Source: a virus
Length of the DNA stretch: 39,149 nt
Strand: one strand, 5' to 3'
IMG/VR virus record: IMGVR_UViG_3300005340_000027
Location: 1 to 39,149 of that record
A program made the translations under genes and the position numbers. The notes below the pieces were generated by a model. It did not search any database, was not told the origin of the DNA, and worked only from the letters and a program-made list of their open reading frames with translations. Positions 27,103 through 32,515 of the stretch are shown one piece after another. Within the stretch, counting starts at the first letter, position 1; each line of letters opens with the position of its first letter.

Positions 27103-27415
27103 TAGCGTTTACCTCCTTTCTAAGCTCCGCTTCCGTCTGCTCGCATCGACGCCAGAAAGCAGGGAAGCGCTTGGATATCTTATCAAATTTCCTAGAGTAT
27201 AGGTCGGCTATTCGACTCAGCGCTATAGCTGATCTAATTAACCTTAATTGATCTAGATTAGATGTTAGCTCGTCTTGCATGAGCTTGTCTGTATGCTCGC
27301 AGCTGTCCCAGATATAGAGAAAGTCGACCATCTCATGATATAAAAGATCCATGTCTTTGGGCCCAAATAGCCTAAGAATAGCGTTAGCCTGGGCCCCTAG
27401 GTCTTTATTTCTCAT
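27059..27415 (-). CDS. Hypothetical helical protein
   Basis: This 118-residue, mostly helical protein was not recognised (DMDLLYHEMVDFLYIWDSCEH; LDQLRLIRSAIALSRIADLYSRKFDK). It overlaps the DUF3310 gene by 11 bases and the next gene by 44. Its role is unknown; its place beside the nucleotide and RNA metabolism genes suggests the early or middle unit. Confidence 0.55.
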   Translation of the reverse strand: MRNKDLGAQANAILRLFGPKDMDLLYHEMVDFLYIWDSCEHTDKLMQDELTSNLDQLRLIRSAIALSRIADLYSRKFDKISKRFPAFWRRCEQTEAELRKEVNANDNTDQDLQQVPTV

Positions 27416-27629
27416 TGCTGCGCTCTAGTTTATCTATCTCTCTCTGTATGTTCCAGATCGCTTTTAACAAGTCCTGAACAGCATCATCTTTGCTACCTGC
27501 TCTCATGATGTAAGCCAGGGCATTGCCCTTATAAAAGCCCAAGTCGTAGGCATCTATAATCTCATAGACCTTTATGCCTGCTCGGCAGTAATAGTCAGGG
27601 TGTATCGGGTCAGGTACATACTCGGTCAT
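27405..27629 (-). CDS. DUF3310 family protein (T7 gp1.7-like nucleotide kinase family)
   Basis: This 74-residue protein matches DUF3310: HPDYYCRAGIKVYEIIDAYDL (residues 10-30, given in part), GNALAYIMRAG (36-46) and DLLKAIWNIQREIDKL (53-68). The T7 member, gp1.7, has nucleotide kinase activity acting on dTMP and dGMP. It is at the small end of the family. It is coupled by ATGA overlap to the metallophosphoesterase gene. Confidence 0.85.
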   Translation of the reverse strand: MTEYVPDPIHPDYYCRAGIKVYEIIDAYDLGFYKGNALAYIMRAGSKDDAVQDLLKAIWNIQREIDKLERSNEK

Positions 27630-28306
27630 AGCTCTATCATCCTCGGCTCGTGTACTGGGTCGTAGTTCTCATCCATTATCGCTGCATTGACAAACTTGCA
27701 GAGCGAACTTTCAAACATACAGCCCCCCATTTCGTGGATATGCCCGAACACATGCAACTTAAGCTTAGGCATTCTGCGACGGCTAAGGATGAGCGATCTT
27801 AACTCGTTGCTGCCTACCCTTCCCTTGCTGCACTCGTCCAGTATCCCAAAAGGGGGGGTATGTGTTATCAAAATATCTGTATCCCTGGGAATTTTGCAAT
27901 ATTTATTAGCAAGATCCTGCTCACTGCCTGTAAAAGCCTTGCACTTAGGATTTATGCCATGAAACCACAAAGACCAAGGTGAACCCCATATCTTGAAACC
28001 ACCGAATTCGCAGCCTGAATCGCATAGATAGTCAAAATCTTGGGGGCCTTCGCCTACCATTTCTCTTATCTCTGCGCAGGTGTCGGCCTCTTCTTTGGTC
28101 TGTGGCCACCCCTTCGAAATAAAGACATCATGATTGCCAGCAATCAGCACTTTCTTTTCATAGTCCTGTTTCTTAAGCCATCTAAAAAAGTCGGCGTACT
28201 CATGGATCTTATCAAAAGGCGTCAGATCTCCCCCTATGATTAGAAGGTCTCCCCCCTTAAGCTTAGGATAAAACCCGTGCAGATCGCTAATACAATCAAT
28301 AATCAT
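27626..28306 (-). CDS. Calcineurin-like metallophosphoesterase
   Basis: This 226-residue enzyme carries the full set of metallophosphoesterase motifs: D8-x-H10 (SDLHG), GGDLT with D27, GNHD (57-60), TH at 148-149 before TPPFG, and GHIH (188-191). Such enzymes hydrolyse phosphomonoesters or phosphodiesters, including cyclic nucleotides and RNA ends, using two metals. It is encoded in one unit with RtcB and the tRNA genes, so a role in processing RNA ends is possible but not shown. Substrate unknown. Confidence 0.88.
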   Translation of the reverse strand: MIIDCISDLHGFYPKLKGGDLLIIGGDLTPFDKIHEYADFFRWLKKQDYEKKVLIAGNHDVFISKGWPQTKEEADTCAEIREMVGEGPQDFDYLCDSGCEFGGFKIWGSPWSLWFHGINPKCKAFTGSEQDLANKYCKIPRDTDILITHTPPFGILDECSKGRVGSNELRSLILSRRRMPKLKLHVFGHIHEMGGCMFESSLCKFVNAAIMDENYDPVHEPRMIEL

Positions 28307-28311
28307 TTAAT

Positions 28312-29109
28312 CTACTTTTGTCTAGGTGATTCAAGCCTGTTCTTAGCGTTTTTGTTGTAAACCTCTAAAATCCTGTTGAATATTTCATCTGTTCTACGGA
28401 ATTTAAGAATATTTAAAACTACGTCCAAGTTGTCCTCTAACTTCTTGAACATACGCTCTCGGTCATAACCTTCTAATCTTATAAGGTGATAAAAGGCATG
28501 GTACATTTCTATGTTTACTTTCTTCACTAACTTGAACTTCAATAGATAATTTACAATTTCCTCTAGTTGAAGCATTACGCTAAATATTTCTTCTTTAGGT
28601 AATTTTAATCTTAACTCCCCATTCTTAAAGTCTAACGAACTGCTAACGTTACCCTTTGACATATGAAATAACTTGATAAACACGTCATAAGCTACTTTGA
28701 ACTCCTCGCAAATTTGCAGGCATAAACCATAGTTTCTGCGCTGCTCTACAGGAAACTCTTTACACTCACAGCTAGAGTAAAAGTAAGCGTAATCCCTTGC
28801 TACCCAGTTACTTGCAGTCACGTTATGCGCTATTAAATCTGCTGGGTGGAAGTTTTCATCGATCACATAATAGAGAGGCTGCTGCGTTGCTTGGGCATAG
28901 CTCCATCGATGCTGGCCGTCGATTATTTCCATGTCCTTATTGACGATGATAGGATGCACATATAGCTTGTTAGATCTAGCTAAGCTTTTAGACATTTTAG
29001 CCAAGTGATTAATAGGCCTGTTATAATCCAAAATTTTGAACTGGTCATAATCCGTCGTTACTTGAATAATTGGGGGCTTCTTAGGTTGAAATTGTTGTGT
29101 CGGCTCCAT
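28312..29109 (-). CDS. ParB/Srx-like domain protein
   Basis: This 261-residue protein has an N-terminal ParB/sulfiredoxin-like domain with VHPIIVNKDMEIIDGQHRWSY (51-71, shown in pieces), where DGQHRW (64-69) is the nucleotide-binding or catalytic box. Residues 100-261 are helical with a possible HTH (VAYDVFIKLFHMSKGNVSSSL). Related domains act as DNA-binding partition factors, CTPases or nucleases. Start at MEPTQQ: AAAGGAAAG precedes that ATG. The gene lies next to RtcB, but a functional link is only inferred. Confidence 0.75.
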   Translation of the reverse strand: MEPTQQFQPKKPPIIQVTTDYDQFKILDYNRPINHLAKMSKSLARSNKLYVHPIIVNKDMEIIDGQHRWSYAQATQQPLYYVIDENFHPADLIAHNVTASNWVARDYAYFYSSCECKEFPVEQRRNYGLCLQICEEFKVAYDVFIKLFHMSKGNVSSSLDFKNGELRLKLPKEEIFSVMLQLEEIVNYLLKFKLVKKVNIEMYHAFYHLIRLEGYDRERMFKKLEDNLDVVLNILKFRRTDEIFNRILEVYNKNAKNRLESPRQK

Positions 29110-29128
29110 GACTTTCCTTTGGGTATTG

Positions 29129-30325
29129 TTAATCTTTATAGGGGTCAAAATCCCTTTCATCGGCCATCGCGACCCCAATAGGGGTCAAGGTATGTAAAAT
29201 CTTCACTGTCTCGCTATGAGCCTGTAAAACGTCTCCTATGCGTTTATATGCGTAAGGACTCTCGTCTAGTCCTCCGCCTCGCAACTCAACATTTGCTCCC
29301 CGCATCCAAGCATCATGAGCTTCACGCTTAACGAGTCCCTCGGTAAGTTGCTTTCCTGTTCTTCGACAGGTTTTTCCCTTGGCTTGTACTCTTCCCATTG
29401 CACGTCCCGCGCCATGCACCGTAGAATAGAGTGACGCGCTCTGTAGCCCATGTCCGTTCCCTTCCTCTCCTCCCACCCCTTCCAGGATAACTGAAATATC
29501 TCCCATAGAACCTCCAACAAAGCCTCTTTGCCTCGGGAAAGCAGGGGTAGCTCCTTTTCTAACGACCCAAAGAGCTTTACCAAAATGGTTTTCTCTCCAT
29601 GCAAAGTTATGGTGATTATGAACTTCGTCAAGTATGTTTCCTCGCAAGATGGCAGAAACGCGGCTACATACCCAATCTCTCCCTGCGTAAGCGTATCTTC
29701 CAGCAAGTTCCATGCATTTAATATATTGCTGTCCAAGGTCTGAATCTTCACTAAATATGACTGGCTTCGCATGAATCCCATCTTTACCCCCCCCTGCTTT
29801 TATGAAATGCGTCGCAATACTGTGTCCAAGACCGCGCGACCCAAAATGTACCCCAATCCAAACCCGCTGTTGTTCGTCAACAAACAGATCGACATAATGA
29901 TTGCCAGAGCCCACAGTTCCAAGTTGTGAAATTGCCTTATCTCTGAGAGACGACAGCAGTGGGATCTCATTCCAAACAGGATCAGAAAAAAGCTCATGCT
30001 CAACTTCTTCATTATTCCACCTTCCCACACCAAAGCTTATATGCTTCTGGATCTCGTTCATAGTTCTATAGATGTTACCTTTAAGTTCCTCAGCAGGACA
30101 GTCCACCAGCACAGCTTTATTACCGCAACCGATATCAAAACCAACTCCGTTGACACAGATCTGCCGTTCATAAGCAATAACACCTCCAACAGGAACAGAA
30201 TACCCAATGTGATGGTCGGCCATAAGGGCACCGTAAACTGCGTCATACTTCATCGCCTCCTTCATCTGGGCTACTGCTTCGGGCAGAGGATCTCCCCAAA
30301 CTGGGATGCCATCGATTATTTGCAT
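29129..30325 (-). CDS. rtcB: RtcB RNA ligase
   Basis: This 398-residue protein is full length (E. coli RtcB 408) and keeps the active-site motifs: GVGFDIGCG (60-68, D64 and C67), SGNHY (140-144), VHFGSRGLGH (159-168, H160), NHHNF (237-241) and VHGAGR (303-308, where H304 is the expected guanylated His). RtcB joins RNA 3'-phosphate or 2',3'-cyclic phosphate ends to 5'-OH ends using GTP and Mn, as in tRNA splicing and repair. It is one gene away from a nine-tRNA array on the same strand. Confidence 0.95.
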   Translation of the reverse strand: MQIIDGIPVWGDPLPEAVAQMKEAMKYDAVYGALMADHHIGYSVPVGGVIAYERQICVNGVGFDIGCGNKAVLVDCPAEELKGNIYRTMNEIQKHISFGVGRWNNEEVEHELFSDPVWNEIPLLSSLRDKAISQLGTVGSGNHYVDLFVDEQQRVWIGVHFGSRGLGHSIATHFIKAGGGKDGIHAKPVIFSEDSDLGQQYIKCMELAGRYAYAGRDWVCSRVSAILRGNILDEVHNHHNFAWRENHFGKALWVVRKGATPAFPRQRGFVGGSMGDISVILEGVGGEEGNGHGLQSASLYSTVHGAGRAMGRVQAKGKTCRRTGKQLTEGLVKREAHDAWMRGANVELRGGGLDESPYAYKRIGDVLQAHSETVKILHTLTPIGVAMADERDFDPYKD

Positions 30326-30326
30326 A

Positions 30327-30539
30327 TCAGTTACTCATTGCGTAATTAATCCAATTCTGTCTTTCAGTTTTTATTTCTAACATTCTGATTGCTATTCTAT
30401 AACAAGATTCACAAACTAGCTTAGCTGAATTAATATCCTCTTTAGGGTGCCACTTTTTAAACCTTTTGATTACCTTATCATCAGCAGTAGTCTTCAGGTA
30501 TTCTTTATGGCACTGGGCACATGTAAAAGTTACATTCAT
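30327..30539 (-). CDS. Hypothetical zinc-ribbon protein
   Basis: This 70-residue protein has CAQC (residues 7-10) and CESC (43-46), a probable zinc ribbon, with a basic linker (KVIKRFKKWHPKE) and a C-terminal amphipathic helix. It lies between the tRNA array and RtcB, with one base between its stop and the RtcB start. It could bind RNA, but function is unknown. Confidence 0.6.
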   Translation of the reverse strand: MNVTFTCAQCHKEYLKTTADDKVIKRFKKWHPKEDINSAKLVCESCYRIAIRMLEIKTERQNWINYAMSN

Positions 30540-30573
30540 TATCCCCCCTATTTACCTATAAGCTACTACCACA

Positions 30574-30645
30574 TGACCCCAACTGGACTCGAACCAGTGC
30601 CTCCAGAGCGAAAGTCTGACGTGCTAACCGCTACACTATAGGGCC
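30574..30645 (-). tRNA. tRNA-Glu (anticodon TTC)
   Basis: This 72-base gene folds with a 7-bp acceptor (two G-U pairs), a 4-bp D-stem, the anticodon stem TCAGA/TCTGG with loop CTTTCGC, and a T-arm containing GGTTCGAGTCC. The anticodon TTC reads GAA and GAG. Discriminator base A; no CCA is encoded, so the tail must be added. Confidence 0.92.
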
Positions 30646-30652
30646 TAACATG

Positions 30653-30725
30653 CGCCAAGTGAGGGAGTCGAACCCACAACAAAGGTTTTGGAGACCTTTC
30701 GCGCACCCCTTGCATCTTACTTGAC
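30653..30725 (-). tRNA. tRNA-Trp (anticodon CCA)
   Basis: Acceptor GTCAAGT/ACTTGGC, anticodon stem AAGGT/ACCTT around CTCCAAA, T-loop TTCGACT, and discriminator G73, the usual Trp identity base. The D-arm is degenerate (only about three pairs, TGC/GCG) and the T-stem has a U-U mismatch. The 3' end reads GCA rather than GCCA. Confidence 0.8.
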
Positions 30726-30727
30726 AT

Positions 30728-30798
30728 CGGGCTATAGCAGAGTTGAACTGCCGCCTTGAGCGTGACAAGCTCATATGCTACCGATACATCAATAACCC
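30728..30798 (-). tRNA. tRNA-Asp (anticodon GTC)
   Basis: Acceptor GGGTTAT/ATAGCCC, D-stem ATGT/GCAT, anticodon stem TGAGC/GCTCA with loop TTGTCAC, T-stem GGCAG/CTGCT, and discriminator G73 as expected for Asp. It is 71 bases long with no encoded CCA. It is separated by two bases from the tRNA-Trp gene. Confidence 0.9.
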
Positions 30799-30800
30799 AT

Positions 30801-30873
30801 AGCTGCGTGTAGGAATCGAACCCACGACATCCTCAGTACAAAAGAGGTGCTCTACCAACTGAGCTAACGCAGC
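30801..30873 (-). tRNA. tRNA-Thr (anticodon TGT)
   Basis: Acceptor GCTGCGT/ACGCAGC, D-stem GCTC/GAGC, loop TTTGTAC and T-stem GTGGG/CCTAC. The anticodon stem CCTCT/TGAGG has a U-U mismatch at its base next to the loop. Anticodon TGT reads ACA. The discriminator is T where bacterial Thr tRNAs usually have A. Confidence 0.88.
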
Positions 30874-30968
30874 AAACAGGAGACCGCTAAGTCTCCCCAA
30901 AAATTACGCCTCTGGCCGAAATAGGTAAGTTGCGATCTTTCCCAGGTCCAGTCGCATATAACTTTTAA
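30874..30968 (-). other. Structured spacer in the tRNA array
   Basis: This 95-base gap holds no tRNA that I can fold. It contains the hairpin GGAGAC/GTCTCC (30879-30884, 30891-30896), a dyad TGCGA/TCGCA around 26 bases (30930-30955), and a small GCC/GGC hairpin. It may be a processing hairpin, a decayed tRNA or a small RNA. Confidence 0.3.
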
Positions 30969-31042
30969 TTGTGCTGCTTGGACTTGAACCAAGGACTTCC
31001 ACCTTATAAGAGTGGCGCTCTCACCTTCTGAGCTACAGCACA
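30969..31042 (-). tRNA. tRNA-Ile (anticodon TAT)
   Basis: Acceptor TGTGCTG/CAGCACA, D-stem GCTC/GAGC, anticodon stem CCACT/GGTGG with loop CTTATAA, and T-arm CTTGG TTCAAGT CCAAG. The literal anticodon TAT decodes AUA, in contrast to the CAT-anticodon (lysidine) tRNA that most bacteria use. Discriminator A. Confidence 0.88.
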
Positions 31043-31046
31043 TCAT

Positions 31047-31118
31047 TGACCCCAATAGGACTTGCACCTATACAATCCAACTTAAAAGGTTGGTGCTCTA
31101 CTATTAAGCTATAGAGTC
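31047..31118 (-). tRNA. tRNA-Lys (anticodon TTT)
   Basis: Acceptor GACTCTA/TGGGGTC with wobble pairs, D-stem GCTT/GAGC, anticodon stem CCAAC/GTTGG with loop CTTTTAA, and T-loop GTGCAAGTCC. The T-loop begins with GTGC instead of TTC, an unusual T-loop. Anticodon TTT reads AAA and AAG. Confidence 0.88.
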
Positions 31119-31120
31119 TT

Positions 31121-31193
31121 AGGACTTGGTAGGACTCGAACCTACGACCATTGGCTTAACAGACCAAAGCTCTAACCACTGAGCTACAAGTCC
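31121..31193 (-). tRNA. tRNA-Asn (anticodon GTT)
   Basis: Acceptor GGACTTG/CAAGTCC, D-stem GCTC/GAGC, anticodon stem TTGGT/GCCAA with loop CTGTTAA, and T-stem GTAGG/CCTAC with TTCGAGT loop. This is the most canonical fold of the array. It is 73 bases long, with no encoded CCA. Confidence 0.93.
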
Positions 31194-31195
31194 AT

Positions 31196-31266
31196 TAGCG
31201 GAAGCTGGAGTCGAACCAACAGCTCTGGCTTATGAAACCAGCGAGTTACCGTTACTCTATACCGCG
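31196..31266 (-). tRNA. tRNA-Met (CAT), initiator-like
   Basis: This 71-base gene has C1 facing T72 (unpaired), the D-stem GAGT/ACTC giving an A11-U24 pair, the anticodon stem CTGGT/GCCAG with loop TTCATAA, and T-stem GTTGG/CCAGC. The open 1:72 end and A11-U24 are hallmarks of bacterial initiator tRNA. The anticodon stem has two G-C pairs and one G-U pair in place of three. T8 is kept, which fixes C1 as the first base. An elongator or Ile-lysidine role is less likely. Confidence 0.85.
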
Positions 31267-31316
31267 TTAAAGTGGAAGCTCTTCCCTTCCTTGGGTGCGT
31301 TATTTCAGCTCCGTGT

Positions 31317-31388
31317 TTGGCGATGATGGAGTCGAACCACCCACTTTCTGCATATCAGGCAGAATTTCTACCGCTGAATTAATCGCCA
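31317..31388 (-). tRNA. tRNA-Ile (anticodon GAT)
   Basis: Acceptor TGGCGAT/ATCGCCA, D-stem with three pairs (TTC/GAA plus an A-A mismatch), anticodon stem TCTGC/GCAGA with loop CTGATAT, and T-stem GGTGG/CCATC. Anticodon GAT reads ATC and ATT. It is first of the array in the direction of transcription, seven bases after the 31395 gene. A 50-base gap with no clear element lies between it and the next tRNA. Confidence 0.88.
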
Positions 31389-31394
31389 GGTTTT

Positions 31395-31655
31395 CTATTT
31401 CGGCTGTGCAGGTCCATTAGGGCCTTTAACAGGTGGAATACCTGGAACGCCTGTAGGGCCTTGGACTTCATACAGCCCCTCTCCGCAAGGGCATTCTTGC
31501 ACGTGTACAGTGTATTGCACCTTACCTCGGCAATAGCCCGTCACCATAAGGTATTCGTGGCCATCTTGGGTAAAATACTCCCTGACAAAATCTGCATCGC
31601 AACCCATAACAGGCCTGGTGCAGAGTAGAGCTAGTGATATAAAAAGTGTCTTCAT
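31395..31655 (-). CDS. Secreted Cys-rich small protein or lipoprotein
   Basis: This 86-residue protein starts with a signal-like segment (MKTLFISLALLC) and a possible weak lipobox VMGC (residues 16-19). Several Cys follow (C42, C54, C56) with CPCGEG. The end is Pro/Gly-rich and collagen-like (GPTGVPGIPPVKGPNGP). It overlaps the SPFH gene by four bases and is probably exported. It could be an exclusion factor or a partner of the SPFH protein; inferred from linkage only. Confidence 0.6.
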   Translation of the reverse strand: MKTLFISLALLCTRPVMGCDADFVREYFTQDGHEYLMVTGYCRGKVQYTVHVQECPCGEGLYEVQGPTGVPGIPPVKGPNGPAQPK

Positions 31656-32515
31656 TCTTTCACCTGTATAAAGGGCATAGCGCCGCTAGTGACGTGAGGC
31701 ATCTTGCCATCCCATTTTTGCACTGCTTGCCATTGAATTAGTTCTGCTGTGATAGACTGCGATAGGGCTGCGTTAGCCTTGGCTTCGCTATCAGCCTTCA
31801 GTATTACACACTTAGCCTGTCCCTCGGCCTTAGCGACCTGTTTTTTGGCCTCTGCTTCAGCCTCCCGCAGCTCATTCTCTCGCTGCTGGGCTCTCTGCAT
31901 CGCTTCTATCTTGGCATTAAGAGCCGAGATAACAGTTGGCGGAAAGTGGAAGCGGCCTATAAGATATATCCGTGATAGCTCTATGCCTATCGGGGCTAGA
32001 TCCTGCTTAACATGGCTCTCTACATCTTCGAAGAAATTCTCTTTCCCAGAGTATAGGTCTTCTATTCGGGTTTTAGAGGCTGACTTGTTAATAGCGTCAC
32101 GGATATAATTCCTGATGAATACATGAGTAATTTCGTCCATGCCGCGTCTGTAACGTTGAAATATAACAGGTATAGACTCAGCGCGAAGGTGATATGTGAT
32201 ACCGATGTCAGCAGACACGGCCATTCCCTCAGATGTCTGAAAATTGAAGCCATCATGGTCACCCTCCCAGGTATCGTTCTGTTCAAAGATAGGGAACTGA
32301 TAGATATTTTTCCATGGTGGGATAAAGTGAAAGCCGACATGCAGCTCTTTGGATTCAACGCCCTTGGAATCGCCTAGCATGTCTACAACCACGCCTACAT
32401 AACCAGGTGATACCGTGGTAAAACACTTAAAGAACCCAATAAGAGCTACAAGCGTTATTAATATAGACTTTTTATATTCCCACACATACTCATACCATTC
32501 TTTTTTTTTATGCAT
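31652..32515 (-). CDS. SPFH/prohibitin-like membrane protein (band 7)
   Basis: This 287-residue protein has an N-terminal membrane segment (ILITLVALIGFF, about 18-29). The SPFH core follows (VSPGYVGVVVDMLGD; LHVGFHFIPPWKNIYQFPIFEQ; QTSEGMAVSADIGITYHL; RNYIRDAI), then a long Glu/Ala-rich coiled coil (IEAMQRAQQRENELREAEAE). SPFH proteins form membrane scaffolds that hold proteases or partition lipids. It may organise the host envelope or protect the cell from other phages. It is uncommon in a 39-kb phage. It overlaps both neighbours. Confidence 0.88.
   Translation of the reverse strand: MHKKKEWYEYVWEYKKSILITLVALIGFFKCFTTVSPGYVGVVVDMLGDSKGVESKELHVGFHFIPPWKNIYQFPIFEQNDTWEGDHDGFNFQTSEGMAVSADIGITYHLRAESIPVIFQRYRRGMDEITHVFIRNYIRDAINKSASKTRIEDLYSGKENFFEDVESHVKQDLAPIGIELSRIYLIGRFHFPPTVISALNAKIEAMQRAQQRENELREAEAEAKKQVAKAEGQAKCVILKADSEAKANAALSQSITAELIQWQAVQKWDGKMPHVTSGAMPFIQVKE

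What the first reader, a model, noticed from the sequence alone, without database searches (positions are those of the whole stretch)
27626..31388. RtcB RNA ligase in one unit with a nine-tRNA array: a possible phage tRNA repair system
A full-length RtcB with its metal-binding and guanylation residues is encoded one gene downstream of nine tRNA genes on the same strand, followed by a ParB-like protein and a metallophosphoesterase. Established: RtcB rejoins 2',3'-cyclic phosphate or 3'-phosphate to 5'-OH ends, the ends left by anticodon nucleases; T4 uses a different pair (Pnkp and Rnl1) for that job. Inference: this phage counters host tRNA cleavage by both supplying replacement tRNAs and resealing cut ones. 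The phosphoesterase and zinc-ribbon protein could tailor ends or hold RNA.
Basis: partly seen in the sequence, partly recalled or inferred. Interest (0 to 1): 0.85.

Follow-up and report, generated by a model that had tools for sequence, protein, structure and literature searches.

The report
Phage RNA-repair ligase beside tRNA array
A small soil phage carries nine tRNA genes directly followed by a gene for the RNA-sealing enzyme RtcB, a pairing already proposed in other phages as protection against bacteria that cut tRNAs; here the pairing turns out to be recurrent but not fixed, because most close relatives keep the RtcB gene without any tRNA genes.

Summary
Nine tRNA genes (30574-31388, eight strong, tRNA-Trp weak) lie on the minus strand, followed after one small Cys-rich ORF by a 398-aa RtcB (29129-30325; PF01139 E 1e-61; model matches RtcB-GMP/Mn at Z 40.9), a ParB-like gene and an MPPED2-like metallophosphoesterase. 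The catalytic His and metal ligands are present. Two guanine-contacting residues differ (E206 to D, K480 to M), but these are conserved across a large subfamily.

Yet arrays and RtcB come together repeatedly: in a capsid relative with a different RtcB, in contig L017, in Tunturi_5 (RtcB inside about 30 tRNAs), in Bricole, and in a few bacterial tRNA clusters. A phylum-wide Acidobacteriota check gave no new case.

Best reading: RtcB is a mobile stand-alone RNA-repair gene, selected mainly for resealing host tRNAs, that sometimes shares an accessory locus with phage tRNAs. A Band-7/slipin neighbour recurs too.

The parts
31652..32515 (-). Band-7/SPFH membrane protein, upstream of the tRNA array
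   Evidence: PF01145 106.5 bits, phrog_200
31395..31655 (-). small ORF with N-terminal hydrophobic stretch, unknown
   Evidence: ORF only, no family hit
31317..31388 (-). tRNA-Ile(gat)
   Evidence: ARAGORN; Rfam tRNA 52.9 bits
31196..31266 (-). tRNA-Met(cat)
   Evidence: ARAGORN; 53.6 bits
31121..31193 (-). tRNA-Asn(gtt)
   Evidence: ARAGORN; 75.2 bits
31047..31118 (-). tRNA-Lys(ttt)
   Evidence: ARAGORN; 65.1 bits
30969..31042 (-). tRNA-Ile(tat)
   Evidence: ARAGORN; 70.2 bits
30801..30873 (-). tRNA-Thr(tgt)
   Evidence: ARAGORN; 65.7 bits; T.T mismatch in anticodon stem
30727..30799 (-). tRNA-Asp(gtc)
   Evidence: ARAGORN; 56.1 bits
30652..30725 (-). tRNA-Trp(cca), divergent
   Evidence: ARAGORN; best clan match only tRNA-Sec 29.1 bits; irregular D arm
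30574..30645 (-). tRNA-Glu(ttc)
   Evidence: ARAGORN; 65.0 bits
30327..30539 (-). 70-aa Cys-rich ORF, possible zinc ribbon
   Evidence: zf-CHY 17.5 bits, below cut-off
29129..30325 (-). RtcB, 398 aa, subfamily with DPYKD tail
   Evidence: PF01139 E 1.2e-61; structure Z 40.9 to 4dwq; dN/dS well below 1 in the clade
28312..29109 (-). ParB-like protein
   Evidence: phrog_12305 E 5.6e-25, no Pfam hit
27626..28306 (-). MPPED2-like calcineurin-type metallophosphoesterase
   Evidence: PF00149 41.3 bits; family profile matches MPPED2 structures at E 2e-50
27405..27629 (-). DUF3310 protein
   Evidence: PF11753 29.8 bits; probably not part of the system

Best explanation
The cassette is an accessory translation-protection locus in a tailed phage. 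RtcB rejoins RNA cut to 2',3'-cyclic-phosphate or 3'-phosphate plus 5'-OH ends. The likeliest substrates are tRNAs cleaved by host anticodon nucleases or toxins, first of all host tRNAs, because close relatives keep RtcB without any phage tRNA. In this genome the nine tRNAs, encoded in the same direction just upstream, add a second line of protection by supplying replacement isoacceptors (including Lys-UUU, Asn/Asp-GUN and Glu-UUC, which are known kinds of nuclease target). Shown here: the genes, their packing, the RtcB fold and catalytic residues, purifying selection, and repeated co-occurrence elsewhere. Inferred: ligase activity, tRNA as substrate, co-transcription, counter-defence function.
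For: RtcB fold and catalytic set; purifying selection. Co-occurrence: among 44 capsid relatives only three have RtcB and all three have tRNAs, against 12 of 41 without RtcB (Fisher P 0.034). The one other array in that set (L076: 12 by ARAGORN, 14 by Rfam) lies on the same strand behind a different RtcB. L017 has 13 tRNAs next to RtcB. Tunturi_5 has RtcB inside about 30 tRNAs, with two tRNA-Pro genes directly behind it. Bricole, Privateer, CsaP_009, Dina and PHB04 have tRNAs within 3 kb; expected 1.6, seen 6 in the sampled phages, P 0.004, or P 0.036 without the three paper-led picks. In bacteria, Salmonella rtcBA is induced by damaged tRNAs (PMC7790460), and Anabaena TrcR co-represses rtcB, a 26-tRNA operon and a slipin gene (PMC10272220).
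Against: Most relatives have RtcB but no tRNAs. In L017 the array and RtcB point towards each other, so they are no operon there. Clustering near tRNAs among bacterial relatives (9.4-fold) failed to replicate in an Acidobacteriota sample: 0 of 14 members other than the known L126, against 1 of 12 other RtcBs. Guanine-pocket changes leave activity open. No host, no nuclease and no expression data.
Confidence: 0.5

Rival explanations
1. Accessory-slot neighbours: RtcB is a stand-alone repair gene for host RNA (tRNA, rRNA or mRNA), and the tRNAs, phosphoesterase and Band-7 gene merely accumulate in the same cargo region without functional coupling.
For: RtcB without tRNAs in most relatives; phosphoesterase about equally common without RtcB (8 of 22 against 7 of 20); RtcB 72-76% identical across contigs whose other virion proteins are about 25-50% alike, so it moves on its own; clustering near tRNAs not replicated in the Acidobacteriota sample.
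Against: RtcB and tRNAs meet repeatedly in unrelated phages and with two different RtcB subfamilies.
Confidence: 0.35
2. The tRNAs serve codon supply only, and RtcB does something unrelated, such as reversing MazF-type cuts in 16S rRNA or mRNA.
For: The nine tRNAs read common codons of this phage (GAA, GAC, ACA, ATA, AAA, AAC, ATC, ATG, TGG).
Against: Other fairly common A-ending codons, such as CTA, TTA and AGA, have no tRNA in the array; the recurrence with RtcB is unexplained. The host and its codon usage are unknown, so this was not properly tested.
Confidence: 0.1
3. This RtcB subfamily is not a GTP-dependent ligase of the usual kind: with M in place of K480 and D for E206 it may use another nucleotide, need a partner, or cap 3'-phosphate ends.
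For: In P. horikoshii RtcB, E206A and K480A are inactive without Archease (PMC3973293); D146 and M387 are invariant in 33 members; the structural alignment ends at model residue 388 and chain residue 481.
Against: Most members end in DPYKD or DPYRD, so a relocated basic residue may replace K480; all metal and nucleophile residues are kept.
Confidence: 0.05

Closest known systems
Mycobacteriophage subcluster K1: RtcB with tRNA (Pope 2011, PMC3203893)
   Same: Phage RtcB together with phage tRNA; the same proposal, protection against host tRNA cleavage
   Different: One tRNA, not adjacent in Niklas; RtcB of another subfamily (about 31% identity)
Mycobacteriophage Bricole (Bongovirus): tRNA array - RtcB - Band-7
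   Same: tRNA array directly before RtcB, with a Band-7 gene beside it
   Different: Unrelated phage, about 28% RtcB identity, Band-7 downstream and no phosphoesterase nearby
Proteus phage Privateer (PMC7881722)
   Same: Three tRNAs about 1 kb before RtcB, and Band-7 1.3 kb after it
   Different: Distant RtcB (33%), an ATPase between RtcB and Band-7, different phage family
Tunturiibacter phage Tunturi_5
   Same: Same RtcB subfamily (56-58% identity), embedded in a tRNA array
   Different: 308-kb phage with about 30 tRNAs nearby; RtcB branches with acidobacterial chromosomal copies
T4 Pnkp/Rnl1 tRNA repair
   Same: Works like it: reseals cut tRNA (inferred here)
   Different: Different chemistry and enzymes; no Rnl1 or Pnkp hit among the window proteins scanned

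Membership tests
RtcB RNA ligase (PF01139) | Profile score above the curated cut-off | tested here: met
   209.7 bits against 27
RtcB RNA ligase (PF01139) | RtcB fold | tested here: met
   AlphaFold model pLDDT 92.5; Z 40.9, rmsd 2.4, 361 residues aligned to 4dwq
RtcB RNA ligase (PF01139) | Guanylated His and Mn ligands (H404; D95, C98, H203, H234, H329; N202) | tested here: met
   H304; D64, C67, H143, H160, H239; N142, all invariant in 33 members
RtcB RNA ligase (PF01139) | Guanine-pocket residues E206 and K480 (seen in characterised members; not part of the profile or fold definition) | tested here: not met
   D146 and M387, conserved across the subfamily. Archease can make these contacts dispensable in P. 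horikoshii (PMC3973293), so this lowers certainty about cofactor use, not family membership
RtcB RNA ligase (PF01139) | 3'-P or 2',3'-cP / 5'-OH ligase activity | not testable with these tools
   Needs purified protein
Phage tRNA-repair system (RtcB plus tRNAs, as proposed for cluster K1) | RtcB and tRNA genes in one phage | tested here: met
Phage tRNA-repair system (RtcB plus tRNAs, as proposed for cluster K1) | Linkage conserved in relatives | tested here: not met
   One of ten RtcB contigs of at least 30 kb has an array
Phage tRNA-repair system (RtcB plus tRNAs, as proposed for cluster K1) | Repair of cut tRNA during infection | not testable with these tools
   Needs infection experiment
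T4-type Pnkp/Rnl1 repair | Rnl1 ligase and kinase-phosphatase genes | tested here: inconclusive
   No Pfam hit among 30 window proteins scanned; small ORFs not all scanned and the contig may be incomplete

The most novel reading that the evidence does not exclude
A portable translational-emergency kit (tRNA array, DPYKD-tail RtcB with altered guanine pocket, Band-7/slipin, sometimes MPPED2-like phosphoesterase or HNH) is shared between phages and bacterial chromosomes, with the slipin as a functional partner of RtcB repair at the membrane.
Probability: 0.12. Interest if true: 0.7.

Novelty: new member of a known kind. Interest (0 to 1): 0.35.

Why it matters
If RtcB reseals tRNAs cut by host nucleases, this phage carries both known answers to anticodon cleavage, repair and replacement, in one tight gene block in a record of only about 39 kb. 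The comparative data also give a natural contrast for testing the idea: relatives with RtcB but no tRNAs, relatives with neither, and one relative with an array beside a different RtcB. The recurring Band-7 neighbour is a concrete lead for a partner of RtcB.

Tried and rejected
(1) 'tRNA and RtcB form a conserved operon in this phage group': rejected, most relatives lack tRNAs. (2) 'The phosphoesterase belongs to the repair system': weakened, it is about equally common without RtcB, although it sits next to RtcB in six of seven relatives that have both. A scan with it alone found only one fragment. (3) 'This RtcB subfamily is generally tied to tRNA genes in bacteria': the first 80 loci gave a 9.4-fold excess within 1 kb, but a phylum-wide Acidobacteriota sample gave 0 of 14 members other than the known L126, against 1 of 12 other RtcBs; one locus per lineage gives only P 0.05. 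Kept as sporadic. (4) Decayed RtcB because of K480M: rejected, the change is invariant in the subfamily and the clade is under purifying selection. (5) Promoter and terminator scan: fewer sites than in shuffles, uninformative. (6) Burroughs and Aravind 2016 and the cluster M paper are not held, so their statements on RtcB neighbours could not be checked. (7) A search for papers holding RtcB, band-7 and phage found none in the held library.
Full report
What is there. The window is a 39,149-base virus record from IMG/VR, possibly a fragment. It encodes a portal protein, a capsid protein, RecT and a DnaB-type primase-helicase. Reading down the minus strand: Band-7/SPFH gene (32515-31652), a small ORF, nine tRNAs (31388-30574), a 70-aa Cys-rich ORF, RtcB (30325-29129), a ParB-like gene, an MPPED2-like metallophosphoesterase, and DUF3310. 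Gaps are 1-34 bp from the last tRNA on, so co-transcription is likely but not shown. Eight tRNAs are sound; Trp is marginal; none encodes CCA, so a CCA-adding enzyme must finish them.

The enzyme. RtcB scores 209.7 bits to PF01139. Its AlphaFold model (pLDDT 92.5) matches P. horikoshii RtcB-GMP/Mn at Z 40.9 over 361 residues. All metal ligands and the guanylated His are invariant in 33 relatives. Two residues that contact the guanine base differ: D146 for E206 and M387 for K480. Alanine changes at these sites abolish P. horikoshii RtcB activity unless Archease is present (PMC3973293). Both differences are subfamily-wide (phages and bacteria alike), and most members end in DPYKD or DPYRD, which may bring a basic residue back (inference). 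The clade is under purifying selection, with dN/dS of about 0.10-0.33 in the least saturated pairs. No NCBIfam RtcB model reaches its cut-off.

Is the linkage conserved? Twenty viral contigs with relatives were fetched; 18 encode RtcB at 65-76% identity. Searching the whole records for tRNAs, among these 18 one (L017) has an array of 12-13, one has a single tRNA, one has two distant ones, and the rest none. Of ten records of at least 30 kb, eight have none. RtcB identity (72-76%) far exceeds that of other virion genes in several contigs (about 25-50%), while L015, whose capsid protein is 85% identical, has RtcB at 70%. The tree puts all window-type phage RtcBs in one clade (100/100) and Tunturi_5 with an acidobacterial copy, with at least four phage/bacterium changes. 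So RtcB moves on its own.

Does the pairing recur? Among 44 capsid relatives, three have RtcB, and all three have tRNAs; of 41 without RtcB, 12 have one or two tRNAs and none has an array (Fisher P 0.034 for any tRNA, 0.07 for arrays, window left out). The array-bearing one, L076, carries a different RtcB (341.6 bits), then a phosphoesterase, then 12-14 tRNAs, all on one strand. In 23 named RtcB phages, 20 have tRNAs and six have them within 3 kb of RtcB, against 1.6 expected (P 0.004; P 0.036 without three picks led by papers). Positions there came from a truncated match list, so these values are approximate. Tunturi_5 has RtcB inside its array.

Bacterial relatives. Of 80 genome loci closest to this RtcB, seven have tRNAs within 1 kb, and in L126, L134 and L138 RtcB lies inside a tRNA cluster; the rate is 9.4 times that at 3-10 kb. 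I then tested this on 247 Acidobacteriota genomes drawn evenly from the phylum. Fifteen carry the subfamily. Apart from L126 itself none has a tRNA within 1.5 kb (0 of 14), against 1 of 12 for other RtcBs. At least one of those 14 (L135) was also in the first set, and some loci end at contig ends, which weakens the test a little, but the bacterial linkage must be called sporadic.

Other neighbours. A Band-7/SPFH gene lies within 1.4 kb of RtcB in the window, L006 and L011, near it in G017 (the record of L019), and in Privateer, CsaP_009, phiCbK and Bricole; for the named phages 4 seen, 0.5 expected, P 0.0008, or 0.006 counting the two sister phages once. In bacteria a slipin lies within 3.4 kb in six of 80 loci (L138, three Bradyrhizobium, L169, L190), and in L190 it is followed by RlaP, an RNA-repair nucleotidyltransferase. 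In Anabaena one repressor controls rtcB, a 26-tRNA operon and, among its most derepressed genes, a slipin and an HNH gene (PMC10272220). The phosphoesterase is present in 7 of 20 RtcB records and 8 of 22 without RtcB, so its presence is not tied to RtcB.

Mechanism. The best-supported account is that RtcB reseals cut tRNAs, mainly the host's, and that in this phage the array adds replacements. The first half rests on RtcB chemistry established elsewhere and on damaged-tRNA control of rtcBA in Salmonella (PMC7790460); the second half on position and recurrence. Neither was tested here. The main rival, co-residence in an accessory region, fits the lack of linkage in relatives almost as well.

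Known or new. RtcB plus tRNAs as a shield against tRNA cleavage was proposed for cluster K1 mycobacteriophages in 2011, noted for Lacusarx and Privateer, and generalised for jumbo phages. Replacement tRNAs evading nucleases are known (PMC10264068; PMC11555353). This locus is a new member of that kind, in a small soil-type phage, with a distinct RtcB subfamily.

Noticed in passing
L018 3599-5779: RtcB ORF of 726 aa carries an intein-like insertion of about 330 aa directly before the catalytic metal-binding Cys (C67 of the window protein); P. horikoshii RtcB is also an intein-bearing protein (1uc2 title).
   Followed up: partly
window 31652-32515; L006 8460-9317; L011 6788-7627; L199, L200, L207, L209: Band-7/SPFH gene recurrently next to RtcB in unrelated phages and, as slipin, in some bacteria.
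   Followed up: partly
L126 11227-11736, L127 9395-9991, L136 7731-8243, L138 8589-9200, L095 6381-6902: Related HNH_5 endonuclease genes sit beside RtcB or inside the tRNA clusters of bacteria and Tunturi_5.
   Followed up: partly
L190 3787-8707; L202 1396-2223: Paenibacillus RtcB locus reads slipin, RlaP, unknown 525-aa protein, RtcB on one strand; jumbo phage HPP-Temi also has RlaP just upstream of RtcB.
   Followed up: no
window 27626-28306: Phage metallophosphoesterase family is strikingly close to animal MPPED2 (profile E 2e-50) and is common in this capsid clade with or without RtcB.
   Followed up: partly
window 30874-30968 and 31267-31316: Two gaps in the tRNA array hold no recognisable tRNA; they may be remains of lost tRNAs or processing spacers.
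   Followed up: no
L217 2938-3531: Brevibacterium phage AGM5 'RtcB' is annotated as a 594-base gene matching only 37% of the query, next to a repeat-bearing HNH gene: a truncated or split RtcB.
   Followed up: no
L076 1258-5133: Capsid relative with a different RtcB, a metallophosphoesterase and 12-14 tRNAs on one strand: an independent version of the same gene set.
   Followed up: yes
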